DNA of 64,000 bases from Nitrospirota bacterium. GTDB taxonomy: Bacteria; Nitrospinota_A; UBA7883. Of the stretch, positions 14,193 through 44,270 are shown in pieces. The notes under the pieces were generated by a model. The model saw only the letters and a list, made by a program, of their open reading frames with translations, did not search any database and was not told the DNA's origin. Within the stretch, counting starts at the first letter, position 1. Each line of letters starts with the position of its first letter. The DNA lies in assembly GCA_024275315.1 (NCBI GenBank), contig JAJRZK010000009.1, forward strand, positions 1 through 64,000, given 5' to 3'. A program made the position numbers and the translations under genes.

Positions 14193-15917
14193 TCAATTGT
14201 CCTGCTTGAAACTCATTATATACGAAACTACGCCGTCTATCTGTTCTTTAGTCAATTTTATGGTCGACATGGAATTTCTGGCGTAACCAAGATGGGCGGC
14301 GCTTTGCTCTGGCGATGTAATGTGCCGCCTGATCTCGTCAGACGTGCGTATTTCAGCGATTTCAGCGAAAGGAGGGCCAAACGCCTCATATATCTGATGA
14401 TGGCAACCCATGCAATAATTGTCGAAAACATCTTTGCCAATCTCGATATCCGACCGTCTACCCGGCGATTCAATCACACGCTCGGGATAGGTTTTGTTGA
14501 CAGCGTTGTATTTGCCCATGGGCTTGTTAAACGGGATTGATTTAACTTCCTCCAGCGAGTTGGAGTCATATATTATGACGGAGCCGTCCTTTCCCGGCAT
14601 GGTGACAAGGGCAAACAGGCCATCGGTGGTGAATTCCACATGCATTGTCTGTCTGCCGGGTCTGGGTGTGAGTGTGCGCCGTTTGGAAAGGTCCTGTTTG
14701 GACACCAGCAGAAAACTGTCCGTAAATGTATCGACCCACAGCCAGGGCGAGGCTTTGTGCGACCGAACAAAAAAACCGGCCCCGGAAAGCTCTATGTCCT
14801 CCACATGCTTGAGCTTGTCGAGTGAGTATATGGTCAGAAACGGCTTTTTTATGTGATTGATAGCTACAAACAGCTCCCCTTTGCTCCTATAGAACGCCGC
14901 CGAAGCAAGGTGAGGCAGGCCGCTGGATTTCACCTTCGCTATTACTTCGCGCTTTTTATAGTTGTATATGTACAACATGTCGCTACCCCGCTTTGTCCCG
15001 ATCAAAAGTGGCCTGGTCGGACATATGGAAATATCCTCGAAAGGCTCGGGCAACGAGTGCTTGTCGATGGCGTACGGAGCGGTGTCGTCTATCATCCACA
15101 GCTCGTTTTTATTTCGGAAAGTAAGTATGAACTTGTGATCGGCGAGCATGTTGTAAAATCCCCCGGCCTTGCCCCCAAAGGTTATTTCTTTTACCGGGTC
15201 CAGGTTATCGTTGAAAAACACGATGTTCGAGGGCAGGTAGTTGGCGACGGCGATCGTCCTGTCGTCATGAGAAACCGCCAGGGATCGTGCGTTTATCCCG
15301 GCCTTCAGCCTGATTTTAGGCGATAACGTCGGAACATGAAACTTGGTCAGCACCCCGTCCCTGGCGATAGAATATATATTTTCCAGGGATGGGGAAAATT
15401 TTGGGCCGCCGTGCACATTTCCCACATAAAACTTTGTCAGAACAGAAAAATCGGCGCTCTTCATCACCGCCAGGCTCTTGGCGCCTTTTTCCATGATCAG
15501 TATGATTTCGTCGAGTTTCCCGGGGTTGATCCCTCGCGTCGCCTCATTTGGAGGAAACTCCTCTCGACTGGCTTTGATATCGTCAAAAGACCACGAAAGA
15601 TCGCCTGCCGGGGTCATTATATATTCGGCGATCTGGTTGATCTGTTTTTTGCCCAGCTTGCCCTTGAAAGCCGGCATCTGCGTCGCCGGCTCGCCGTTTG
15701 CTATTATGTTTCTGATACGCTCCAATGACTGTTTTTTCAGAAACTCCGGTACCAGCGGAGGAGCCGTTAGGCCCAAACGGCGGGGATGATGACAAGAAGC
15801 GCAATGCTTTTTGTAAAGATCAGCGCCTTTTTTGTTCGGCTGGGACCATGCGAAAGGAGGGAAAAACGCCAAGAAAAGCGCAATCACCCATAGCCATGGT
15901 CTAAGCATAGAAGCCAT
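14193..15917 (-). CDS. nirN: NirN-like cytochrome with two c-heme domains flanking a d1 propeller
   Basis: This 574-residue protein has a signal peptide (residues 1-25), an N-terminal cytochrome c domain with C39-x2-C42-H43, a d1-type propeller at about residues 120-485, and a second cytochrome c domain at the C-terminus with C502-x2-C505-H506. NirN is a periplasmic dehydrogenase that oxidises dihydro-heme d1 and passes d1 to NirS. Typical NirN has only the N-terminal c domain; the added C-terminal domain looks like a NirC-type monoheme cytochrome fused on. It lies 87 bases after nirS, behind a hairpin, and three bases before nirJ. ATG 15917 or 15908 may be the start. A diverged second nitrite reductase is less likely. 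Confidence 0.8.
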   Translation of the reverse strand: MASMLRPWLWVIALFLAFFPPFAWSQPNKKGADLYKKHCASCHHPRRLGLTAPPLVPEFLKKQSLERIRNIIANGEPATQMPAFKGKLGKKQINQIAEYIMTPAGDLSWSFDDIKASREEFPPNEATRGINPGKLDEIILIMEKGAKSLAVMKSADFSVLTKFYVGNVHGGPKFSPSLENIYSIARDGVLTKFHVPTLSPKIRLKAGINARSLAVSHDDRTIAVANYLPSNIVFFNDNLDPVKEITFGGKAGGFYNMLADHKFILTFRNKNELWMIDDTAPYAIDKHSLPEPFEDISICPTRPLLIGTKRGSDMLYIYNYKKREVIAKVKSSGLPHLASAAFYRSKGELFVAINHIKKPFLTIYSLDKLKHVEDIELSGAGFFVRSHKASPWLWVDTFTDSFLLVSKQDLSKRRTLTPRPGRQTMHVEFTTDGLFALVTMPGKDGSVIIYDSNSLEEVKSIPFNKPMGKYNAVNKTYPERVIESPGRRSDIEIGKDVFDNYCMGCHHQIYEAFGPPFAEIAEIRTSDEIRRHITSPEQSAAHLGYARNSMSTIKLTKEQIDGVVSYIMSFKQDN

Positions 15918-16004: not shown

Positions 16005-17612
16005 CTAGTAAATATCGTGCATGGTGTTGTATACGTTGAACTTGCCTGTCGGTGTGACCAGCCCTGTGATCCTCTTTTTGATCTTCAGGGTCTTGTCATC
16101 GATAACGACTACCTGTCCATCTTTCTCCCACACACTTATCCAGACCTCGTCACCGGCTTTGTTGTACTCCATGTGCACAACTCGGGCTTTAGAGCCCTTG
16201 GGCGCGATTTTGATGCTCTTGAGCACGCCAGGCTTGTTGATGTCCATCACCTGAACACTCTGATAGCTTTCCTTATCCGTGTTAAGGGTGAAGTCTAGCC
16301 ACATGTGCTTGCTTTTCGGGTGGGTCTTCATGAAAAGACTGCCCGATCCGGGAGGCAACTCAATAGAACGAACAACTTTCCAGGCGTATTGGGGATGCCC
16401 TTTCGGATCCGAGCCCCAAACAGAAAGCAGACCTTCACCTATATGAACTGTGCCGGAAACAGGCCCGTACTTAGGATCGATCCAGTTGCCGCCGCGCCCT
16501 GGGTGGGGCTTGGTGCCGACAGTAAACTGCCCGACTTTCTTACGCTCCTTGGTGTCGATTATGACCATGGTGTCGCGCATGTTGGCCGCGGCCATGAAAT
16601 ACCTGTGAGTAGCGTCCCAGCCTCCATCGTGCAGGAACCGCTCTCCCTCGATCATGGAGATTTTCAGGTTGTCGATGTTGGAGTAATCGACCAGCCAGAT
16701 GTAGCCTGTCTCCTTGATATTGAGCACCCATTCCGGAGAATAGTGGGAGGATACGATGGCCGCAACGCGAGGCTCGGCGTGGTACGTAAACGTATCATAA
16801 GTGTAGCCGCGGGTGCTGACCACTTTTTTCGGCTCGAGACTCAGACCGTCGAGCACCACAAAATGCGGAGGCCAGTAACAACCAACTATCAACCACTTGT
16901 CCTCAAAACCATGGAACTTGCTGGAGTCTACCGAGCGGGCTTCAGCGCAGGTTTTTACGGTAGCGACAAGTGTCGGTTTTTTCATGAACAGGTCGATCAG
17001 GCCAACTTTGCCGTCCCGACCGATCGATACGAAATACCGCCCTGTGGCAGAGGACCGAAGAATATGCGTCGCATAGCCAGAATCGACCTTGTTGATAATT
17101 TCCTTCGTGTCGCCGTCAATAATGGCGATCTTGCCAGCGTCGCGCTCGACCACGCCGAAGAAGTTCTGCCAATTGCGTTTGTGCAACGGTTTGGAAGGCC
17201 TGTTTTTCACCGGCACGATAATCTTATGGGTCATTTTCATCTGCCCAATAGACATCTCGGGCGGAGCTACTGGCTTGTTCTGGATGAACCTGGCCATCAG
17301 GTTCGTTTCGGCCTTTGTGATCATTCCCGACTCACCAAAGTTGGGCATGCCGCCCGGCGTGCCTTCGTTGATGATCTCCTGGAGGGTTTCAGTGCCCATC
17401 TCCAAGGTTTTTTTCGGTTTCAGGTTTGGGCCTGTGGCGCCTTTGCGGAGTGTCCCGTGACACCCGGCGCAACGGTCAAAATAGATCTGCGTCGCCTTCT
17501 TCCACTCATCCTTGGTCAGCTTGGGCGCACCGGCGGCCATGGCTGCGGACGAGGAAAAAAGCAAGACAATTGAAAACAGCGAGATCCAATAGGCGTGTTT
17601 CCCTCTCATCAT
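16005..17612 (-). CDS. nirS: NirS, cytochrome cd1 nitrite reductase
   Basis: This 535-residue protein has a signal peptide (cut near residue 27), a cytochrome c domain with C48-x2-C51-H52, and an eight-bladed d1 propeller. His182 in ATHILRSS corresponds to the proximal d1-heme ligand, while His328 (RFLHDGGWDATH) and His370 (TKPHPGRGGN) match the two distal catalytic histidines. The protein ends in TGKFNVYNTMHDIY, almost the family consensus. NirS reduces nitrite to nitric oxide in the periplasm. It heads the nirS-nirN-nirJ-nirF unit. A perfect inverted repeat lies at 17713-17730, about 100 bases upstream, suggesting Crp/Fnr-type control. ATG 17612 or 17609 is the start; AGGGGGAATG lies just upstream. 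Confidence 0.97.
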   Translation of the reverse strand: MMRGKHAYWISLFSIVLLFSSSAAMAAGAPKLTKDEWKKATQIYFDRCAGCHGTLRKGATGPNLKPKKTLEMGTETLQEIINEGTPGGMPNFGESGMITKAETNLMARFIQNKPVAPPEMSIGQMKMTHKIIVPVKNRPSKPLHKRNWQNFFGVVERDAGKIAIIDGDTKEIINKVDSGYATHILRSSATGRYFVSIGRDGKVGLIDLFMKKPTLVATVKTCAEARSVDSSKFHGFEDKWLIVGCYWPPHFVVLDGLSLEPKKVVSTRGYTYDTFTYHAEPRVAAIVSSHYSPEWVLNIKETGYIWLVDYSNIDNLKISMIEGERFLHDGGWDATHRYFMAAANMRDTMVIIDTKERKKVGQFTVGTKPHPGRGGNWIDPKYGPVSGTVHIGEGLLSVWGSDPKGHPQYAWKVVRSIELPPGSGSLFMKTHPKSKHMWLDFTLNTDKESYQSVQVMDINKPGVLKSIKIAPKGSKARVVHMEYNKAGDEVWISVWEKDGQVVVIDDKTLKIKKRITGLVTPTGKFNVYNTMHDIY

Positions 17613-17712: not shown

Positions 17713-17730
17713 ATATGATTTAAGTCATAT
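17713..17730. promoter_or_regulatory. Palindrome A, candidate Crp/Fnr-family site upstream of nirS
   Basis: ATATGA-N6-TCATAT, perfect in six bases per arm with spacer TTTAAG, about 100 bases upstream of the nirS start. It shares the core TATGA-N6-TCATA with three other sites near nitrogen-oxide and heme-protein genes. The half-site spacing equals that of Crp/Fnr-superfamily operators. Confidence 0.7.
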
Positions 17731-17917: not shown

Positions 17918-17933
17918 CATGACTTTTGTCATA
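17918..17933. promoter_or_regulatory. Palindrome B, candidate Crp/Fnr-family site upstream of the NO reductase operon
   Basis: CATGA-CTTTTG-TCATA, one outer mismatch from the shared core but with an extended perfect inner dyad ATGAC-TTTT-GTCAT. It lies about 125 bases before the first small-subunit gene. Confidence 0.65.
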
Positions 17934-18056: not shown

Positions 18057-18236
18057 ATGACAGAAGAATCCCAAGCTCAAGAAAGTGGCGGGAAGCCAGC
18101 TTCCTATTGGGAGGTTTTTTATGACGACATTTTTCTGCTTTTTTTCCTGAGTATAGCGATATTGTATATCTCCTATACTGTTTGGGGTCTGATGGAGCTT
18201 GGCACCGTCGATCCTTCGCCACTTCTGAAACCATAA
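18057..18236 (+). CDS. Small membrane subunit of the CuA heme-copper reductase
   Basis: This 59-residue protein has one transmembrane helix at about residues 25-45 (DIFLLFFLSIAILYISYTVW), a polar N-terminus and a short proline-containing tail. It is preceded by TGGAGGGGG at a good distance from ATG 18057. It is the first gene of the unit and lies 31 bases before the CuA subunit, so it is probably an accessory subunit of the reductase, comparable in size to the single-helix subunits of other heme-copper enzymes. I do not recognise a named family. Confidence 0.75.
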   Translation: MTEESQAQESGGKPASYWEVFYDDIFLLFFLSIAILYISYTVWGLMELGTVDPSPLLKP

Positions 18237-18267: not shown

Positions 18268-18798
18268 ATGAGTGTAACTTCGCCACAACCTGGTTGGTGG
18301 AACACTCCACTTCACAAAGAGGAGAAAATTTGGATCACCATAGCGTTCGTATGGTGCATCCTTATAACTTTGGCGATGCCTGCCTGGCATCTTTTCGGAA
18401 CACAAAACGCGGCGTCTGAATATTACAAGATATCAACGGAGGATTTTGGCTTCCTGACCGACGCTTTTATCGAGAAATATACAGTGGGCGAGGATTCGGG
18501 AGTCCCGGTCGTAGCCCCTCCCGCCGGCGCAGATATTTTTCTTCGCGGGCAACAGTGGGGATGGGATCCTGTCCTCAAGCTGAAACAGGGTTCGACCTAC
18601 AGGCTTCATCTTTCGTCTGTTGACGTGAACCACTCCATGTCCCTGTTGCCTATGAACATGAATTTTAAAGCGGTTCCGGGATGGGATAACGTATTGACGA
18701 TCACTCCTACGTCCAGCGGGAGTTTCAATCTAATCTGTAATGAATTTTGCGGCATCGGGCACCACTCGATGAACGGCAAGATTATAGTTGATTCCTAA
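18268..18798 (+). CDS. Heme-copper reductase subunit II with CuA site
   Basis: This 176-residue protein has a single N-terminal transmembrane anchor at about residues 22-44 and a cupredoxin domain at about 80-176. The CuA motif is complete: C157, E159, C161, H165 and M168 in CNEFCGIGHHSMNG, with the upstream histidine in VDVNHSMSL. The domain faces the periplasm and takes electrons from a cytochrome c or cupredoxin. The one-helix layout resembles B-family (ba3-like) subunit II rather than two-helix A-family subunits. Its partner subunit I starts 15 bases downstream. ATG 18268 follows a GAAGGGGGA ribosome-binding site. Confidence 0.92.
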   Translation: MSVTSPQPGWWNTPLHKEEKIWITIAFVWCILITLAMPAWHLFGTQNAASEYYKISTEDFGFLTDAFIEKYTVGEDSGVPVVAPPAGADIFLRGQQWGWDPVLKLKQGSTYRLHLSSVDVNHSMSLLPMNMNFKAVPGWDNVLTITPTSSGSFNLICNEFCGIGHHSMNGKIIVDS

Positions 18799-18813
18799 GG
18801 AGGGGGTGTGACA

Positions 18814-20328
18814 ATGGCATCAGGCAATTTCAGGACTTGTCCTACGACGGGGTTTAAAATACATATCCCCGCGCAGACTTTGATACAAACGAACGCCGTG
18901 ACGGCGATCGTGTTTCTTCTTGTCGGTGGCATCCTCGGGCTGGGGATGGTTCTCACCAGATGGCAGGCGGTTCATCTTCTTAACGACGAGTGGTTTTACA
19001 GGCTACTCACTCTCCACGGTATCGCAATGCTTGTGGCGTGGATCATTTTCTTCGAGATGGCCGTGCTCTATTTCGCCAGCGCTATCGTTTTAAGCAGCAG
19101 ACTCGCCGCCCCCTGGGCCGGTTGGTTGCAATATGTGTTAATGCTCGGCGGCGCGGCCCTTACGGCAGTCCAGATACTGCTGGGCAACGCGGACGTCATG
19201 TTTACTTCATATGTGCCGTTGCAGGCGAATCATCTTTATTATCTTGGTATTATTCTTTTCGCCGTCGGGGCGATAGTTGGTTGTATAGTTTTCTTTGCGA
19301 CCCTGGTCGTGGCCAAGACCGAAGGCACCTACAAGGGCTCTTTGCCCCTGGTAACTTTCGGCGCCGCCGCGGCGGCTATTATCGCTATAGCCACTCTTTC
19401 TCACGGCGCGATCGTTTTTATACCGACGTGGCTGTGGGCGGCGGGGATCATCCCGATGATGGACGCGGAGGTTTACCGCCTTTTGTTCTGGGGATTCGGT
19501 CACTCCTCCCAGCAGATCAACGTGTGCGCCATGGTATCCGTCTGGTACCTGTTGGGCACATTGACTGTCGGAGCGAAACCGATGAACGAGAAGGTATGCC
19601 GCACAGCGTTTGTTTTCTACATACTGTTCATCAACATCGCTTCTGAGCATCACCTTTTGACCGACCCGGGTCTTTCGGCCGCTCACAAAACCTGGAACAC
19701 CGGCTACTTCATGCACCTGGCGGTTCTGGCCAGCATGATCCACGCCTTCTCCATTCCCGGTTGTATAGAAGTGGCTCTTCGCAAGAAAGGGTATACGAGG
19801 GGCGCGTTCGAGTGGCTCAAGAAAGCCCCGTGGGGCAACCCCGGCTTTTCAGCGCTGGCGCTTTCCCTTTTTGGGTTTGGTTTTCTGGGCGGCATCACCG
19901 GTGTTGTTTACGGCACGGAGCAGGTCAACATAATCGCCCATAACAACCTGAGAATCCCGGGTCACTTTCACGCTACCGTGGTGGCGGGAACCACCCTGGC
20001 GTTCATGGGTATCACTTACTACGTTCTGCCTCTTATTTTCCGCCGTGAGGTGGCGTTCCCGGGGCTGGCCAAGCTTCAGCCGTATATTTTCGGTATTGCC
20101 ATGTATGTCGTGAGCGTTTCCATGATGTTCGCCGGCGGTTTCGGCGTATCGCGCAGAAGCTGGGACATGAACGGGGTGGACGGGCCTTTCCAGGTCAACT
20201 TTGGCCCCATCGTCGACATGGCGCTTGCCATAATGGGTATCGCTGGCGTCGTAGCCTGCATAGGCGGTGCGATGTACTGCATAATCGCCGTTGCGACGTT
20301 GCTTATCGGCAAAAAAATCGAGGCGTAA
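18814..20328 (+). CDS. Heme-copper reductase subunit I lacking the catalytic tyrosine (probable CuA nitric oxide reductase)
   Basis: This 504-residue protein has about 12 transmembrane helices. Low-spin heme ligands are H68 (TLHGIAM) and H386, the high-spin ligand is H384 (GHFHATV), and the copper ligands are H230 (FGHSSQQ) and the pair H279/H280 (ASEHHLL). In oxygen reductases the residue four after the first copper ligand is the cross-linked Tyr; here it is Gln234. Loss of that Tyr is typical of nitric oxide reductases in the superfamily, and the nirS neighbour points the same way. Together with CuA subunit II it resembles the non-canonical eNOR/sNOR-type groups, not cNor or qNor. An oxidase with a relocated Tyr cannot be excluded. 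ATG 18814 is favoured because GGAGGGGG at 18799-18806 is correctly spaced. Confidence 0.85.
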
Positions 20329-20353: not shown

Positions 20354-20479
20354 ATGTCACATAATCCTGATCACGCGCCGAAAGGCTCGTTTATCATAAT
20401 TATGATTTTCTTTGTTTGCTTTGTGCTGTTTTATCTGCTGAACTGGAAATACCTTACGGATGTATGGATAGTCGGCTAG
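20354..20479 (+). CDS. Small membrane subunit (IIa-like) of the heme-copper reductase
   Basis: This 41-residue protein has one transmembrane helix at about residues 12-32 ([19 protein letters not shown]) and a short charged N-terminus with His residues. AGAGGAG precedes ATG 20354. It is the last gene before a strong terminator. Its size and place after subunit I resemble the subunit IIa of ba3-type enzymes; homology cannot be shown at this length. Confidence 0.75.
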
Positions 20480-20500
20480 ATTGAAAGATCAGCAAATACG

Positions 20501-20535
20501 CCGACCGCCCCTTCGTGGGCGGTCGGTTTTTTTTT
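20501..20535 (+). terminator. Rho-independent terminator of the CuA reductase operon
   Basis: A perfect 10-bp G/C-rich stem (20501-20510 with 20517-20526) with a CTTCGT loop, followed by nine T residues. It ends the reductase unit 22 bases after the last small subunit gene. Confidence 0.95.
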
Positions 20536-20590
20536 ATCCAAGCCGACACCGTCCGCGAAGTCCTTAAATATCAATATAAAAATCAATCAT

Positions 20591-20606
20591 TATGATTTTC
20601 GTCATA
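20591..20606. promoter_or_regulatory. Palindrome C, candidate Crp/Fnr-family site upstream of sco-cytochrome b
   Basis: TATGA-TTTTCG-TCATA, a perfect match to the shared core, 74 bases before ATG 20680 and directly after the terminator of the reductase operon. It indicates that the SCO-cytochrome b genes have their own co-regulated promoter. Confidence 0.7.
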
Positions 20607-20679
20607 CAGAACTGATATTCGGTGATGTATCAAATTTGTATGGAAGTAATCTGATTATTTGCTTATCGCGGTATTTGTT

Positions 20680-21486
20680 ATGCGCCATTGTGTAGTATGT
20701 GTTGTTTGGTGCGTTGTGGCTTGCATATTCCAGGCAGATGACGCCGGCGCGATATCCGCTATCGAAAAGTCCCAGGCCTCCGTCGGGAAAACCGTCCGTA
20801 ACTACCGGCTTATAGACCAGGACGCCAGCTTTTTCGCTTTTTACAGCCTGAAAGGCAAACCGGTGCTTCTTACCTTCATTTACACCGAATGTCCGGGCCC
20901 GTGCCCCCTCATATGTGAAAGTATAAAAGCAATACATGAATCCATGGGACCGGAGTTGACCGAACAAATCTGGACTGTCGCGGTCAGTTTTGATCCACTA
21001 AACGACACTCCCGGACGACTTAAAGAGTTCGGGCTGGAGTTTGTGGATAATTTTGACAACTGGATTTTCGCCACCACCGATTATGACACTCTCGAGATGA
21101 TGGTCGACGATCTCGGTTTTCGGTTTGACAGAAATGAAAACGGCTTCGAGCATATGAACCGGTTGACGCTGATAGGGCGGGATGGCGTTGTGCTGAAGCA
21201 TTTTTATGGCACGGAGTACGATGTCAAGAATGTGGAAGACGCCGTCCGGTCAGCCCTGGAGGGGCGCACCATCAAAAGCGCCATTGCCGATTCATTCGAT
21301 TGGGCTTTGCTTTATTGTTCCAATTACGACCCGGCTACCAAAACCTACAAAATCGACTATCTTTTCGTTTTTGCCGTAATCGCCCAATATATTTTGATAG
21401 TAGGCACACTACTGTTTATTTTCCGGAAAAAAATCTGGGTATTTTTCTCGCATTTATTCAAACGAGGCTTTAACAATGTCAATTGA
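20680..21486 (+). CDS. SCO1/SenC-type copper chaperone with C-terminal membrane anchor
   Basis: About 268 residues. An N-terminal signal or anchor (about residues 3-20) precedes a thioredoxin-like SCO domain at about 30-190. The copper-binding cysteines are in ECPGPCP (C-x3-C) and the third ligand histidine is in the FEHMNRLTLI segment. A second transmembrane helix is near the C-terminus (about 225-250), as in SCO proteins of oxidase operons in several phyla. SCO proteins deliver copper to, or reduce, the CuA site of subunit II, so it probably serves the CuA reductase upstream. It overlaps the next gene by 11 bases. A TTG at 20659 is an alternative start. Confidence 0.88.
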   Translation: MRHCVVCVVWCVVACIFQADDAGAISAIEKSQASVGKTVRNYRLIDQDASFFAFYSLKGKPVLLTFIYTECPGPCPLICESIKAIHESMGPELTEQIWTVAVSFDPLNDTPGRLKEFGLEFVDNFDNWIFATTDYDTLEMMVDDLGFRFDRNENGFEHMNRLTLIGRDGVVLKHFYGTEYDVKNVEDAVRSALEGRTIKSAIADSFDWALLYCSNYDPATKTYKIDYLFVFAVIAQYILIVGTLLFIFRKKIWVFFSHLFKRGFNNVN

Positions 21487-23125
21487 TGAAACCAAGGACC
21501 CGGTGGCAAAGGCGCACAGGAAAGCTCCGCCAAGATCAAAGCAAACCAACCGTCTGATTCCCTGGGCCTTAAGACCTGGAAATACGATTCTTGTCTCCGT
21601 ACAGGAAATGTTCAACCGGTTTTTTACTCCAACGCTAAATCCTTTGTATTACCTGGGCGCTATCACATTTCTCCTGTTCTGGGTGGTGCTGGCTTCCGGT
21701 ATATATCTGTTCCTTTTCTATGATATGAGCTCCCATGGGGCGTACGAATCGGTCAGGCACATTACCCAGGACCAGAAGTATTACGGTGGTATCATGAGAT
21801 CACTTCACCGGTACGCCTCAGACGGGCTGGTGATAGTTATTCTCATTCATATGGCGCAGGTCTTTTTCTCTGACCGGTTCCGGCGCTATCGCTGGGTGGC
21901 GTGGGTCACGGGTGTGGTGATCATTCCAATAATTTGGTTTGAAGGTATTTCCGGTTATGTGCTGGTATGGGACCAGGCGGCCCAGGTAATGGCTCTTATT
22001 TTCGCTGATATACTGGACATTCTTCCGATAAATTCAGAGCCGATTCCCAGCTATTTTCTGACAAACGAGTCGGTCCATATGCTTTTTTTCGTGCTTAACT
22101 ATTTGCATGTGGCCATACCTTTCTTGCTTTTGATAATGGCGTGGGTGCATTGCATGCGGATTTCCATGCCCCTGATCAATCCTCCCAGGCAGGTGACTGT
22201 TGTCATATTGCTGTCGCTACTTGGCCTGTCATTGGTAAAACCGGCCGTAAGCGGCGCCCCGGCGGATCTATCCACCCTGGTGGGGCAGGCTCCTGTCGAT
22301 TGGTTTTTCGTTCCCTTTTTTCCCTTGGTCAGCGGCCTGAGCCTGTCGCCTGAAATGGTTTGGGTGTACGGCGGGATAGGATTTGCTCTTTTCACTTGCC
22401 TGCCGTGGCTGGTGCCGGAGCCGAAAAAACACAAGCAAACCGGATCATCGGTAACCCAATGCGTGGTGAATGTGGATCTTGAAAGTTGCAAGGGTTGTGT
22501 ATTATGCCAGCAGGCGTGCCCTTTCGAGGCGATGAAAGTTGTTCCGAGAACGGATGGAGAGCCGTACGAGCAGCAGGCGGAGGTTGTCCCGACAAGGTGT
22601 GCGGAATGCGGCTTTTGCGTTAACGCGTGCGAATTCAACGCGGTTTCCATGGGCGAATGGAGCAAATCGGCGTTCCAGGACCATATCGAATCCCTGCTCC
22701 AACCCGAATCCTCCGGCAATGGTTCCTCTGCAAAACCCAGCGTCATCGTATTCGTATGCGAGCGAAGTTTTGATCAGGAAAAGTTTTTCAATCCGAAAAA
22801 GACACGACTGGCCCATAACGAGGAAATCGCCTCCATGACGATACCTTGCATAGGCGTTGTCAGTCCCGCGATCGTCGATTACAGCATATCGGCGGGGGCC
22901 AAAGGGATAATCGTGGTAGGTTGCCGGGGCCTTGATTGTCACTACAGGGAAGCCCGCCGCCGCCTTGCGTTTACGGATAACTCCTCTATTTCCTACAGAT
23001 TTCTCGTGGAAAAGATGGATGAGCCGAACGTCAAGATCATGCTGGTCTCACCATTCGATGTGGATTCGACGATAAAGGAGATCGACGAATTCAACGAGCT
23101 GATAAAATCAAATAACCTGGCCTAG
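21476..23125 (+). CDS. Cytochrome b fused to two-cluster ferredoxin and MvhD-like domain
   Basis: This 549-residue fusion has an N-terminal cytochrome b/b6 domain at about residues 45-235 with bis-His heme pairs H111/H125 and H211/H225, and extra helices to about 312. A 2[4Fe-4S] ferredoxin domain follows, with C338-C341-C344-C348 and C375-C378-C381-C385. The C-terminal domain at about 420-545 resembles the delta subunit of methyl-viologen-reducing hydrogenase (MvhD/FrhD): cysteines C428, C458, C483 and C488 lie in VFVCERS, IPCIGV and VVGCRGLDCHY. It likely moves electrons between the quinone pool and cytoplasmic low-potential carriers, perhaps Hdr-like partners, none of which is in the window. 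No Rieske or cytochrome c1 gene is nearby. Confidence 0.87.
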   Translation: MSIDETKDPVAKAHRKAPPRSKQTNRLIPWALRPGNTILVSVQEMFNRFFTPTLNPLYYLGAITFLLFWVVLASGIYLFLFYDMSSHGAYESVRHITQDQKYYGGIMRSLHRYASDGLVIVILIHMAQVFFSDRFRRYRWVAWVTGVVIIPIIWFEGISGYVLVWDQAAQVMALIFADILDILPINSEPIPSYFLTNESVHMLFFVLNYLHVAIPFLLLIMAWVHCMRISMPLINPPRQVTVVILLSLLGLSLVKPAVSGAPADLSTLVGQAPVDWFFVPFFPLVSGLSLSPEMVWVYGGIGFALFTCLPWLVPEPKKHKQTGSSVTQCVVNVDLESCKGCVLCQQACPFEAMKVVPRTDGEPYEQQAEVVPTRCAECGFCVNACEFNAVSMGEWSKSAFQDHIESLLQPESSGNGSSAKPSVIVFVCERSFDQEKFFNPKKTRLAHNEEIASMTIPCIGVVSPAIVDYSISAGAKGIIVVGCRGLDCHYREARRRLAFTDNSSISYRFLVEKMDEPNVKIMLVSPFDVDSTIKEIDEFNELIKSNNLA

Positions 23126-23148: not shown

Positions 23149-23673
23149 ATGGATAATGAGAGACTTTCGCTACCGGCGATATTAATTCTTGTGGCGCCGG
23201 TTTTGTTGATCGGTTTTTTTTCCACCTCTCCGGCTTATGAATATAACAAGCCGGACGATTCGATGTTGATTGTTTCTTTCAAGAAATCGACTATGCGGCT
23301 TACACTGTGCACCCAGGAGGAGTTGAAAAAATTCAAGGCCGTCGCCAAGAGCAGGCGAAAACATATGCAACGCGCCTCCAGGGTGTGCGGAAGCCGCGAA
23401 CGTGCGCCCCTGGCCCTTACAATCTGGCTGGATGGTAAAAAGGTGACGGATAAACACATCTTCCCGTCAGGGCTCCGCAATGACGGGCTTGTGTTTGTAT
23501 ATGACCGGTTCAAGCTTCCAAAAGGAAATCATAAAGTGAAGATAAACATCAGCGACCATAGAAAAGATGGGAGCGGTGAAGCGGTGTCATTCTCTGAAAA
23601 CATAAAATTTGCCGAGCGTGAAGTCGTGGTGGTGGAGTATGACAAGGGAAGCAATAAACTGTTTGTATACTAA
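23149..23673 (+). CDS. Membrane-anchored periplasmic protein after the cytochrome b fusion
   Basis: This 174-residue protein has one N-terminal hydrophobic segment at about residues 8-28 ending near a cleavage-like SPAYE, then a beta-rich domain. Two cysteines (C53, C80; LTLCTQEE and SRVCGSRER) could form a disulphide. The segment with APLALTIWLDGKKVTDKHI followed by FKLPKGNHKVKINISD reads like a small immunoglobulin-type or PEGA-like beta domain, but I do not recognise a named family. It starts 23 bases after the cytochrome b fusion, in the same unit, so it may be a dedicated accessory protein of that complex. Confidence 0.65.
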   Translation: MDNERLSLPAILILVAPVLLIGFFSTSPAYEYNKPDDSMLIVSFKKSTMRLTLCTQEELKKFKAVAKSRRKHMQRASRVCGSRERAPLALTIWLDGKKVTDKHIFPSGLRNDGLVFVYDRFKLPKGNHKVKINISDHRKDGSGEAVSFSENIKFAEREVVVVEYDKGSNKLFVY

Positions 23674-40725: not shown

Positions 40726-42012
40726 ATGATTGGCATATCCGCCTTGTATTGCAGCACGGAAAACGAAGGCGACGCCATACGATACGGCAAGCAGTCCCAC
40801 GGCATGAAGGCGCGTCCGAACGCGCATACCGTTCCGAAGTCCGCCGCAGAGCGCAGGCCCGTGACCGCATGGAACATCACGCGCACTTGCAACCTTAAAT
40901 GCGTCCACTGCTACAGCAACTCTGAGGAAAAAGCATATAGCGGCGAGTTGACGACGGACGAAGGCAAAAACCTGATAACCGACCTGGCCGGGTTCAATAT
41001 CCCCGCATTGCTTTTTTCCGGTGGGGAGCCATTGGTACGCAAGGATATCTGGGAGCTTGCCGAACATGCGAAAAAAGAGAAGCTTCGCCTTACTCTTTCG
41101 ACAAACGGCGTCCTTATCGACGAGCAAACCGCCAGAAGAATAAAGGATATAGGTTTTACATATGTAGGTATCAGCCTTGACGGTATCGGCGCGGTTAACG
41201 ACAAGTTCCGTGGCAAGAGCGGAGCTTTTAAAAAGGCCATGCGCGGATTTAAAAACTGCGTCTCTGTCGGCCAGAAAGTAGGGTTGCGGATGACGCTGAC
41301 CCGTCATAACTTTGAAAACCTGCACGAAATTTTCGATTTCATCGAAGCAGAAGAGATACAGCGGGCCTGTTTCTATCACCTTGTCTATTCCGGCAGGGGC
41401 GAGGGGATATCGGACGAGGACCTGACCCATGAAGAGACCCGTGGCGCAATGGACATCATACTGGAGCGCACCGAGGATTTTCACAAGCGGGGCCTTAACA
41501 AGGATATCCTGACAGTCGACAATCATGTGGACGGGCCATACATGTACCTCAAGTTGCTGGAAAAAAATGAAAAACAGGCCGAGGAGGTCAAAAAATCGTT
41601 GGAATGGAACGGGGGCGGAAGATATTCGTCCGGCGTTTCTTTCGCCGATATCGACTTTTTAGGCAACGTGCACGCGGACCAGTTCTGGATGCACTACACC
41701 TTTGGCAACATAAGGGAGCGCCGGTTTAGCGAAATTTGGCAGGACACCTCCGATAAGCTGATGAACATCCTGAAAAACAGGCTGGACAACCTCAAAGGTA
41801 AATGCACGAAGTGCAGATTCCTGATGATGTGCGGCGGCAGTTTGCGAGTCCGGGCGGACCTGGTATATTCCGATCCATGCGCCCCGGACCCGGCTTGTTA
41901 CCTGACGGATGAAGAGTGCGGCATATCACCGGCCGACCGTGCGGAGCTGAAATCCCGCGGAGAGGATTTTCCCGTGCCGGAGCGTCTTTTGGCGAAATCA
42001 ACCGCGGTTTAA
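40726..42012 (+). CDS. ahbC: AhbC-like radical SAM enzyme (NirJ1-type)
   Basis: This 428-residue protein has radical SAM cysteines C55, C59 and C62 in CNLKCVHC, a SGGEPLVRKD motif, and C-terminal SPASM-type cysteines in CTKCRFLMMCGG and DPACYLTDEECG. It shares HLVYSGRG and DNHVDGPYMYLKLLEKN-type segments with the NirJ protein at 13011-14189. Next to the AhbD-like gene it most likely is AhbC, which removes two acetates' carboxyls from didecarboxysiroheme to form iron-coproporphyrin III in siroheme-dependent heme synthesis. A role in d1 synthesis cannot be excluded. ATG 40726 follows TACGGAGGACAATAG. Confidence 0.8.
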   Translation: MIGISALYCSTENEGDAIRYGKQSHGMKARPNAHTVPKSAAERRPVTAWNITRTCNLKCVHCYSNSEEKAYSGELTTDEGKNLITDLAGFNIPALLFSGGEPLVRKDIWELAEHAKKEKLRLTLSTNGVLIDEQTARRIKDIGFTYVGISLDGIGAVNDKFRGKSGAFKKAMRGFKNCVSVGQKVGLRMTLTRHNFENLHEIFDFIEAEEIQRACFYHLVYSGRGEGISDEDLTHEETRGAMDIILERTEDFHKRGLNKDILTVDNHVDGPYMYLKLLEKNEKQAEEVKKSLEWNGGGRYSSGVSFADIDFLGNVHADQFWMHYTFGNIRERRFSEIWQDTSDKLMNILKNRLDNLKGKCTKCRFLMMCGGSLRVRADLVYSDPCAPDPACYLTDEECGISPADRAELKSRGEDFPVPERLLAKSTAV

Positions 42013-42060
42013 GGGACTTCATCCCTTTCCGTTTACCCGCTCTATCTAAAGAGAAGCAAT

Positions 42061-43263
42061 ATGCCACATCCATCGAAACCCAATGATTCCAACCCTTCAG
42101 ACGAAAAACGCAAGGGGACGATCAAGCAAGTCTATCAATCCATAAAGGACAAGGACGATGGCCACAGCCACGCCCGCAAATTCATGATGAAAGACCAGCT
42201 TCGGCTGGTGTTTTGGGAGACAACAGCCGGTTGCAACTTAGAATGCGTTCATTGCCGCCGTCTCGACGTGGCCCACGAAATGATGAAAAGCGACCTTACC
42301 ACGGAACAGTCGAAACAGTTAATGGACAATATAGCCGCCGAGTCGAAATGCATCCTGGTGCTCTCCGGCGGGGAACCCCTTTTTCGGCCGGATATTTACG
42401 AGTTGGCGGAATATGGCCATTCTATAGGGTTGACCATGGCGCTTGCCACAAACGGCACTTTGGTGACCCACGAAGTGGCGCAAAAGATCGTAGACGCGAA
42501 GATACAGAGAGTATCCATATCGCTGGACGGCGCCTCCGCGCAAACTCATGACAAGTTCCGCAATCTTCCCGGCTCCTTCGAGTCTGCCATGCGGGGTCTT
42601 AAAAACCTCCAGGCGCTGGGCATGGAGACCCAGATAAACTCCACGATAGCAAAACACAACGTGCACGAGGTCAAACAGCTATACCAGAACGCCATAGACC
42701 TGGGTGTCGAGGCGTTGCACATTTTCATGCTGGTGCCTGTGGGGTGTGGTGTGAAGATCGCTGATGACGCCATGCTCGAAGCGGAGAAATACGAGGAAGT
42801 GCTCAACTGGTTCTACGAGATATCCAGAGAGGGTAAAATCCAGACAAAAGCCACCTGCGCCCCTCATTATTTCCGCATAATGCGGCAACGGGCCAAAAAG
42901 GAGGGTATAACCATATCTCCGAAAACCCACGGCATGGCCGCCATGACCAAAGGGTGTCTTGCGGGGCAGAGTATCTGTTTCATCTCCCACAAAGGGGAGG
43001 TGTTCCCCTGCGGTTACCTGCCAGTAGAGGCTGGCCACGTGCTAAAACAGCCATTTACGGAGATATGGAACAAGTCGCAGGTGTTCACCGACCTGCGCGA
43101 CCAAGACAAACTGGGCGGTAAATGTGGCGTGTGCGAATATAAAAAGGTGTGCGAAGGATGCCGTGCCCGCGCCTTTTTCGACACACAGGGAGACTATATG
43201 GCAGAAGAGCCGTACTGCATTTACGAGCCCACGAGTATCAAACAGGCGCTGGACGGAAAGTAG
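42061..43263 (+). CDS. ahbD: AhbD-like radical SAM heme synthase
   Basis: This 400-residue protein has radical SAM cysteines C58, C62 and C65 in CNLECVHC, the leading FWETTAGC stretch, SGGEPLFRPD, and a C-terminal cluster CGVCEYKKVCEGCRARAF followed by AEEPYCIYEP, closely matching AhbD. AhbD oxidatively decarboxylates the two propionates of iron-coproporphyrin III to heme b. It lies 48 bases after ahbC in one unit. Together they supply heme anaerobically for the many heme proteins of this region. AhbA/AhbB and siroheme genes are not in view. Confidence 0.88.
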   Translation: MPHPSKPNDSNPSDEKRKGTIKQVYQSIKDKDDGHSHARKFMMKDQLRLVFWETTAGCNLECVHCRRLDVAHEMMKSDLTTEQSKQLMDNIAAESKCILVLSGGEPLFRPDIYELAEYGHSIGLTMALATNGTLVTHEVAQKIVDAKIQRVSISLDGASAQTHDKFRNLPGSFESAMRGLKNLQALGMETQINSTIAKHNVHEVKQLYQNAIDLGVEALHIFMLVPVGCGVKIADDAMLEAEKYEEVLNWFYEISREGKIQTKATCAPHYFRIMRQRAKKEGITISPKTHGMAAMTKGCLAGQSICFISHKGEVFPCGYLPVEAGHVLKQPFTEIWNKSQVFTDLRDQDKLGGKCGVCEYKKVCEGCRARAFFDTQGDYMAEEPYCIYEPTSIKQALDGK

Positions 43264-43875: not shown

Positions 43876-44270
43876 GTCTCCCCCTCGTAAAAATCATTTA
43901 GTCGACCCGATAAACCTTGAATAATCATGGTTTATACCATAATATTGGACGAAAAATGTATCCCATTCCCCGGTCCGGCGATTTGGGAAAAACCTTTTCT
44001 CCCCCGCCCTACAATACTATCGCGTTTTATAGCGGCAATGGGCGCCTGCCGCTATGATAAAAGTCATAAAATGACCATCCAGATATCGCTTCTAACTATG
44101 GTAAATGCGCAATCACAGTTTGACCAAAAATCCTTAAAACCAAAATCATGATCGTTTTTCCTAGACGGAGCGTTTTGTTGTTAATATAATTATACGTTGA
44201 TGGAATGTGTCAAAATAGCAGGCGGTTATTGGTCGCGTAACTAACAAAATTATAAAAGATCATTCTAATT
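43876..44270. other. Intergenic gap before the pilB-like gene
   Basis: A gap of about 395 bases, A/T-rich, between divergent genes. It contains palindrome D (44053-44068) and no credible gene. An ATCATGAT dyad is near 44146. Confidence 0.6.
44053..44068. promoter_or_regulatory. Palindrome D, candidate Crp/Fnr-family site
   Basis: TATGA-TAAAAG-TCATA, a perfect match to the core seen at palindromes A and C and, with one mismatch, B. It lies 178 bases upstream of the secreted heme-motif gene and about 200 bases upstream of the pilB-like gene. The heme-protein gene is the likelier target. Confidence 0.6.

What the first reader, a model, noticed from the sequence alone, without database searches (positions are those of the whole stretch)
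21476..23125. Cytochrome b fused to a two-cluster ferredoxin and an MvhD-like domain
A bis-heme b6-type domain (H111/H125, H211/H225) is fused to eight ferredoxin cysteines and an MvhD-like domain with four cysteines. It joins a membrane quinone module to the type of module that connects hydrogenases to Hdr flavin bifurcation. No Rieske, cytochrome c1 or Hdr gene is next to it. Sitting after sco and under palindrome C, it may feed or bypass the NO-reducing chain.
Basis: partly seen in the sequence, partly recalled or inferred. Interest (0 to 1): 0.8.

Follow-up and report, generated by a model that had tools for sequence, protein, structure and literature searches.

The report
Cytosol-wired cytochrome b of NO-reductase operons
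This gene encodes a membrane cytochrome b that lacks its usual Rieske partner and instead carries an iron-sulfur wire into the cytoplasm; it travels with an unusual nitric-oxide reductase (eNOR) in several bacterial phyla, which suggests that N2O-forming respiration is directly coupled to the cell's NAD(P)H or ferredoxin pool.

Summary
Window 21476-23125 encodes a 549-aa fusion of a b6-type di-heme cytochrome b, an eight-cysteine ferredoxin and an FlpD/MvhD domain. The cytochrome part also holds two subunit-IV-like helices in which the quinol-site motif PEWY has become x-D-W-F. It is a regular member of eNOR operons (CuA subunit, Gln-type eNOR, SCO, this protein, a membrane-anchored partner) in Nitrospinota, Nitrospirota and several proteobacterial lineages; 53 of 57 relatives with enough upstream DNA have eNOR in the same locus. 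Its cytoplasmic arm varies: a NuoF-like subunit lies beside the fusion in 11 loci, and in betaproteobacteria a paralogue nested inside this family carries a [2Fe-2S]-FAD-NAD reductase instead. HdrA is not the general partner: 15 of 18 proteobacterial genomes tested lack an HdrA-like flavoprotein. I infer a Rieske-free cytochrome b that couples quinol and eNOR to the NAD(P)H/ferredoxin pool, perhaps by quinol bifurcation. This rests on genomics alone and the direction of flow is not shown. No paper I could read, and no public annotation I saw, assigns it a function; the main eNOR paper (Murali et al. 2024) was not available.

The parts
21476..23125 (+). Cytochrome b - 2[4Fe-4S] ferredoxin - FlpD/MvhD fusion (CFM), 549 aa
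21623..22162 (+). b6-type domain, residues 50-229, heme ligands H111/H125 and H211/H225
   Evidence: PF00033 E=3e-23; His conserved 104-105/105; PDB b6 chains E=2e-21
22181..22414 (+). Subunit-IV-like helices E and F, residues ~236-313; DWF (275-277, nt 22298-22306) in place of PEWY
   Evidence: profile match to PDB cyt b extends to profile position ~291; D 102/105, W 105/105, F 95/105; helices 238-254 and 292-307 in the model
22469..22642 (+). 2[4Fe-4S] ferredoxin domain, residues 332-389
   Evidence: PF00037/PF12838; 8 Cys near-invariant; profile matches HdrA C-terminal ferredoxin 5odc_A 574-651
22742..23107 (+). FlpD/MvhD domain, residues 423-544, four Cys
   Evidence: PF02662; profile E=2e-19 to MvhD-type chains
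23149..23673 (+). Membrane-anchored beta-sandwich partner, 174 aa; fused to the C-terminus of CFM in about 32 relatives
   Evidence: alignment A4, model pLDDT 91, HMM E<=1e-38 on CFM extensions
20659..21486 (+). SCO1/SenC copper chaperone
   Evidence: PF02630 E=1e-14
18808..20328 (+). eNOR catalytic subunit (HCO with Gln236 where oxidases have the cross-linked Tyr)
   Evidence: PF00115 E=5e-61; GHSSQQ, HH, HFH motifs; Q in all eNOR-type sequences that have that column
18268..18798 (+). eNOR subunit II with CuA motif CNEFCGIGHHSM
   Evidence: PF00116; CuA motif in 45 of 47 homologues by strict pattern
18057..18236 (+). Small single-TM protein, 59 aa, probable eNOR small subunit
   Evidence: homologues in 14 named loci, upstream of COX2 where both are seen
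20354..20479 (+). 41-aa single-TM peptide after eNOR, similar ORF in most of the phylum; probable small subunit
20494..20540 (+). Intrinsic-terminator-like hairpin between eNOR and the sco-CFM unit
   Evidence: inverted repeat followed by T-run
20591..20606 (.). Operator-like palindrome TATGATTTTCGTCATA upstream of sco-CFM
   Evidence: similar sites upstream of sco in several relatives
17714..17729 (.). Same palindrome in the divergent nirS/eNOR intergenic region
   Evidence: similar sites upstream of eNOR in several relatives
17918..17933 (.). Third copy, 2 mismatches, upstream of the eNOR unit
16005..17612 (-). NirS-type cytochrome cd1 nitrite reductase (NO source), divergent from eNOR
   Evidence: PF02239 E=3e-123 plus a cytochrome c domain

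Best explanation
CFM is the dedicated cytochrome b of an eNOR electron-transfer complex. It keeps the two b hemes and a p-side quinol site of changed chemistry (DWF for PEWY) but has no Rieske protein. On the cytoplasmic side an HdrA/MvhD-type chain (FlpD [2Fe-2S], then two [4Fe-4S]) connects the n-side heme to the NAD(P)H or ferredoxin pool. Most likely it bifurcates quinol: one electron goes on the p side to the CuA of eNOR, where NO is reduced to N2O, and the other goes through the hemes and Fe-S chain to NAD(P)+ or ferredoxin. Shown: the domains, the conserved ligands and the operon linkage. Inferred from relatives: the NAD(P)H/ferredoxin end. Inferred only: the direction, direct transfer to CuA, and bifurcation. 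I put the bridge itself at about 0.75 and the bifurcating direction at about 0.4; the cytoplasmic partner in the window organism is unknown.
For: Domains and ligands. Operon linkage: 53 of 57 Fd-type relatives with at least 4.5 kb upstream have eNOR in the locus; 59 of 60 on the same strand, median gap 1.8 kb. In the phylum 18 of 24 genomes have eNOR and 20 of 24 have a CFM relative; only one eNOR genome lacks it. NADH end: a NuoF-like subunit (PF01512 E=6e-44) beside CFM in 11 loci, between two CFM genes in most complete ones. The Fer2-FAD-NAD version forms a clade of 12 (100/96) sister to the CFM of the same betaproteobacterial operons (100/99), which indicates duplication and exchange of the cytoplasmic module. 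The conserved ef-loop Asp-Trp argues for a working p-side site. CuA is present. In the model the Fd-FlpD arm follows helix F, on the n side by positive-inside and bc-type topology. Precedent: anammox Rieske/cytochrome b complexes with a cytoplasmic NAD(P) oxidoreductase, proposed to make NAD(P)H by quinol bifurcation (PMC12954380).
Against: No Rieske protein or other obvious one-electron acceptor is encoded in the locus, and direct quinol-to-CuA transfer has no precedent that I know. eNOR is reported to take electrons from cytochrome c (PMC8879329, citing Murali et al.). Nitrospinota genomes G004 and G007 (and probably G005, truncated) have only the cytochrome b part in the operon, so the cytoplasmic arm is dispensable there. 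The window locus itself has no NADH module; its two NuoF-like genes lie on other contigs. BenC-like reductases normally oxidise NADH, which favours the opposite direction.
Confidence: 0.4

Rival explanations
1. Same bridge, opposite direction: NAD(P)H or reduced ferredoxin feeds electrons through FlpD and the ferredoxin to the b hemes, and from there to quinone and eNOR, giving a dedicated NO-reducing branch that bypasses complex I and bc1.
For: The cytoplasmic modules seen in relatives, NuoF and a BenC/MmoC-like reductase, are normally NADH-oxidising. In the HdrA-MvhD complex electrons enter through MvhD (PMC9012536). NO poisons ordinary heme enzymes, so a separate feed is plausible.
Against: It wastes energy in autotrophs, the argument made for the anammox complexes (PMC12954380). 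It gives no clear reason for the conserved p-side D-W-F motif.
Confidence: 0.3
2. CFM is an ordinary quinol dehydrogenase for eNOR; the Fd-FlpD arm is regulatory or used only under some conditions.
For: Nitrospinota genomes G004 and G007 have the cytochrome b without the arm in the same operon. A few paralogues have lost single FlpD cysteines.
Against: All twelve arm cysteines are kept in at least 101 of 105 homologues across several phyla, and the arm is replaced elsewhere by another electron-transfer module rather than simply lost.
Confidence: 0.15
3. One reading: the MvhD domain plugs into an HdrA-type flavin-bifurcating complex.
For: The Fd-FlpD part is similar to the HdrA C-terminal ferredoxin and MvhD; the window genome has QmoA/QmoB, which are HdrA-like.
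Against: 15 of 18 proteobacterial genomes with CFM have no HdrA/Qmo-like protein; their best HdrA match is CFM itself. No hdr gene was seen among the shared neighbours in 79 loci.
Confidence: 0.04
4. CFM serves eNOR assembly or redox sensing rather than catalysis.
For: It sits next to SCO and often to the heme o synthase CtaB and a hemerythrin.
Against: Four heme ligands, twelve Fe-S cysteines and a quinol-site motif are all conserved.
Confidence: 0.05

Closest known systems
Anammox Rieske/cytochrome b complexes Kuste4569-4574 and Kustd1480-1485 (PMC12954380)
   Same: b6-type cytochrome b with subunit-IV-like part, a cytoplasmic module for the pyridine-nucleotide pool reached over an Fe-S chain, and a nitrogen-oxide reaction as the proposed exergonic branch (for Kuste4569-4574)
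   Different: They have Rieske proteins and multiheme cytochromes c; CFM operons have neither, but a CuA-type eNOR. The window locus has no NAD module of its own.
HdrA C-terminal ferredoxin + MvhD (e.g. 5ODC)
   Same: The same two kinds of Fe-S module side by side, by profile and cysteine conservation
   Different: No HdrA flavin domain, no HdrBC, no hydrogenase; the wire ends on a membrane cytochrome b
Cytochrome b6/subunit IV of b6f and bc1 cytochrome b
   Same: Four heme ligands, helices A-F, ef-loop acid/aromatic motif
   Different: xDWF instead of PEWY, no later C-terminal helices, no Rieske partner in the operon, added cytoplasmic arm
Archaeal SoxABCD quinol oxidase (SoxC cytochrome b; from memory, apart from a weak NCBIfam match)
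   Same: A cytochrome b dedicated to one heme-copper enzyme
   Different: No Fe-S/FlpD arm; reduces O2, not NO
QmoABC with AprAB, present elsewhere in this genome
   Same: FlpD- and ferredoxin-bearing subunit linked to a quinone-reactive membrane cytochrome
   Different: QmoC is a different cytochrome family (own knowledge), and electrons go to APS reductase

Membership tests
bc/b6-type cytochrome b | Two pairs of axial heme histidines | tested here: met
   H111/H125/H211/H225, 104-105 of 105
bc/b6-type cytochrome b | PEWY motif at the quinol-oxidation site | tested here: not met
   xDWF: D 102/105, W 105/105; the canonical copy on C24 has PEWY
bc/b6-type cytochrome b | Rieske partner gene beside it | tested here: not met
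   No Rieske in the window operon; PF00355 hits in this genome lie on C24 and C41
FlpD/MvhD | Sequence family membership and cluster cysteines | tested here: met
   PF02662 above cut-off; four Cys at least 101/105; MvhD profile match
FlpD/MvhD | Hydrogenase and HdrA partners | tested here: not met
   None in the operon; HdrA-like proteins absent in 15 of 18 proteobacterial genomes; hydrogenases were not searched genome-wide
eNOR operon | Gln at the position of the cross-linked Tyr in subunit I | tested here: met
   Q236; criterion from PMC8756737
eNOR operon | CuA subunit II | tested here: met
   CNEFCGIGHHSM
eNOR operon | NO reductase activity | not testable with these tools
   Sequence only
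Anammox-type NAD(P)-linked Rieske/cytochrome b complex | Cytoplasmic NAD(P) oxidoreductase module | tested here: inconclusive
   Not in the window locus; NuoF-like gene beside CFM in 11 loci and a Fer2-FAD-NAD arm on a clade of 12 paralogues, confirmed by Pfam in one member
Anammox-type NAD(P)-linked Rieske/cytochrome b complex | High-potential Rieske protein | tested here: not met
   No Rieske in the operon

The most novel reading that the evidence does not exclude
A Rieske-free quinol-bifurcating complex in which the CuA of a nitric-oxide reductase takes the high-potential electron while a cytochrome b, through an HdrA/MvhD-type or NADH-dehydrogenase arm, sends the low-potential electron uphill to NAD(P)+ or ferredoxin, so that NO reduction to N2O would directly pay for reducing power.
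Probability: 0.25. Interest if true: 0.9.

Novelty: new variant of a known kind. Interest (0 to 1): 0.7.

Why it matters
How eNOR, a widespread N2O-forming enzyme, is fed and whether it conserves energy are open questions. A conserved cytochrome b partner with a cytoplasmic Fe-S arm, interchangeable with NADH modules, makes a testable prediction: NO reduction in these bacteria is coupled directly to the NAD(P)H or ferredoxin pool. That would change energy budgets for iron oxidisers, Nitrospinota and other low-energy denitrifiers, and add a second case beside anammox of cytochrome b complexes tied to pyridine nucleotides. In the one annotated record found, the genes are called only 'cytochrome b N-terminal domain-containing protein' and 'hypothetical protein', so gene surveys would miss them.

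Tried and rejected
HdrA as partner: rejected as a general mechanism. Canonical FNR/NnrR box TTGAY-N4-RTCAA as the regulator site: not above chance (6 hits, 7.9 expected); the shared element is TATGATTTNNGTCATA instead. The beta-sandwich partner (23149-23673) as a known fold: no PDB match with E<=0.001. The same partner as a redox metal site: unlikely, because the two Cys that are invariant in the stand-alone form are both missing in some fused forms. First genome-contig scan with the single protein found nothing; the alignment query succeeded. The script's first attempt to label the FNR fusions by motif failed; they appear as 'other' and were identified by Pfam in one member, the rest by clade; one 'other' row (L095_21) groups with the canonical cytochrome b. 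Literature: ten searches found no paper describing this partner; Murali et al. (PNAS 2024) was not held.

Full report
Observation. The ORF at 21476-23125 is real and has the stated architecture: cytochrome b N-terminal domain, two-cluster ferredoxin, FlpD/MvhD. An alignment with relatives from the same small phylum shows the four heme histidines and almost all Fe-S cysteines invariant; over 105 homologues of the Fd-FlpD type the figures are 104-105 for the histidines and at least 101 for each cysteine. Profile searches place the cytochrome on b6 and bc1 cytochrome b, the ferredoxin on the C-terminal ferredoxin of HdrA (among other ferredoxins), and the last domain on MvhD. The AlphaFold2 model is confident (pLDDT 88.3, pTM 0.87) and its best PDB matches are bc1 cytochromes b over about 290-360 columns.

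Anatomy. Beyond the b6 part, residues ~236-313 resemble the first two helices of subunit IV. Where canonical subunit IV has PEWY (seen in this genome's own Rieske/b6/subunit IV set on contig C24), this family has x-D-W-F, with D in 102 and W in 105 of 105. Six membrane helices and the positive-inside pattern put the Fd-FlpD arm in the cytoplasm (inference). The gene overlaps sco by 11 nt and is followed by a membrane-anchored beta-sandwich protein (23149-23673). In about 32 relatives that protein is fused to the C-terminus of CFM (HMM E<=1e-38), so the two very probably form one complex.

Surroundings. Upstream on the same strand are a 59-aa TM peptide, a CuA subunit, a heme-copper enzyme with the GHSSQQ motif, and a 41-aa TM peptide, then a terminator-like hairpin. 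The Gln in place of the cross-linked Tyr is the published mark of eNOR (PMC8756737). Divergent from these lie a cytochrome cd1 nitrite reductase, a NirN-like protein and NirJ. The palindrome TATGATTTNNGTCATA occurs in the nirS/eNOR intergenic region and again before sco-CFM (6 hits, 0.32 expected), and similar sites lie at the same places in several relatives. This suggests, but does not show, joint regulation.

Distribution. In the phylum, which matches named Nitrospinota contigs by length and place, eNOR is in 18 of 24 genomes and a CFM relative in 20 of 24. One eNOR genome (G011) lacks CFM; of the CFM genomes without eNOR, G005 and G010 have the operon cut by a contig end and G001 has only a weak cytochrome b match. 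A scan of one genome per species found 232 relatives; the best 80 gave 79 loci from Nitrospinota, Nitrospirota, 'Deltaproteobacteria' and Alpha-, Beta-, Gamma- and Zetaproteobacteria. Of 57 Fd-type genes with at least 4.5 kb upstream, 53 have eNOR in the same locus; 59 of 60 pairs are on the same strand. Counts are of the best matches only and include some of the same Nitrospinota genomes, so they are not an unbiased survey.

The cytoplasmic end. In 11 loci of Nitrospirota, Nitrospinota and deltaproteobacterial MAGs a NuoF-like gene lies beside CFM, between two CFM genes in most of those whose contig is complete enough. In Gallionellaceae, Nitrosomonadales and Polaromonas the operon has two cytochromes b: one CFM and one paralogue whose arm is a [2Fe-2S] ferredoxin, FAD and NAD domain. 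In the tree this paralogue is a clade of 12 (100/96), sister to the CFM of the same operons (100/99), inside the proteobacterial CFM (midpoint root, long branches flagged). The simplest reading is duplication followed by exchange of the cytoplasmic module. Together these suggest that the Fd-FlpD arm serves the same purpose: electron exchange with NAD(P)H or ferredoxin. HdrA-like flavoproteins are absent from 15 of 18 proteobacterial genomes tested, so Hdr is not the general partner.

Mechanism. The bridge between quinone/eNOR and the cytosolic pool is my main inference (about 0.75). For the direction I prefer quinol bifurcation (about 0.4) over NAD(P)H feed (about 0.3): the p-side motif is strongly conserved, many hosts are thought to be autotrophs for which NADH is costly, and anammox complexes of similar build are proposed to work so (PMC12954380). 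Against it, no Rieske protein is present, eNOR is reported to use cytochrome c (PMC8879329), the arm is missing in some Nitrospinota, and the reductase families involved normally oxidise NADH. None of this was measured.

Novelty. None of the eNOR papers I could read describes this partner. The library does not hold the main eNOR study, so priority is unsettled. Each module is known; the combination, its tie to eNOR and the exchangeable arms make it a new variant of a known kind.

Noticed in passing
L074:12210-13682, L076:7419-8822 and 33 more; G000:C19:61413-62711: A second heme-copper-like family with GGHxxQF in helix VI and no HH in helix VII, i.e. apparently without two CuB ligands, often beside CFM genes and present once in the window genome away from eNOR; no NCBIfam match.
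   Followed up: partly
window 44053-44068: A fourth near-copy of the palindrome (2 mismatches), far from the nir/eNOR region and downstream of two radical SAM genes (40726-43263).
   Followed up: no
window 14193-15917 (-): NirN-like protein with two cytochrome c domains around a d1-type propeller, conserved next to nirS in relatives.
   Followed up: no
G000:C58, locus L051: AprA-QmoA-QmoB-QmoC gene set and a Sat-like gene: sulfur-compound metabolism in the same genome.
   Followed up: partly
L049:8741-10588, L048, L050: Distant CFM relatives (26-29% identity) next to a kinase-like gene and without a heme-copper gene in the stretch read.
   Followed up: no
L161 (NZ_CP156080.1): The complete eNOR-CFM operon on a plasmid of an alphaproteobacterium (Defluviimonas), followed by a hemerythrin gene.
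   Followed up: partly
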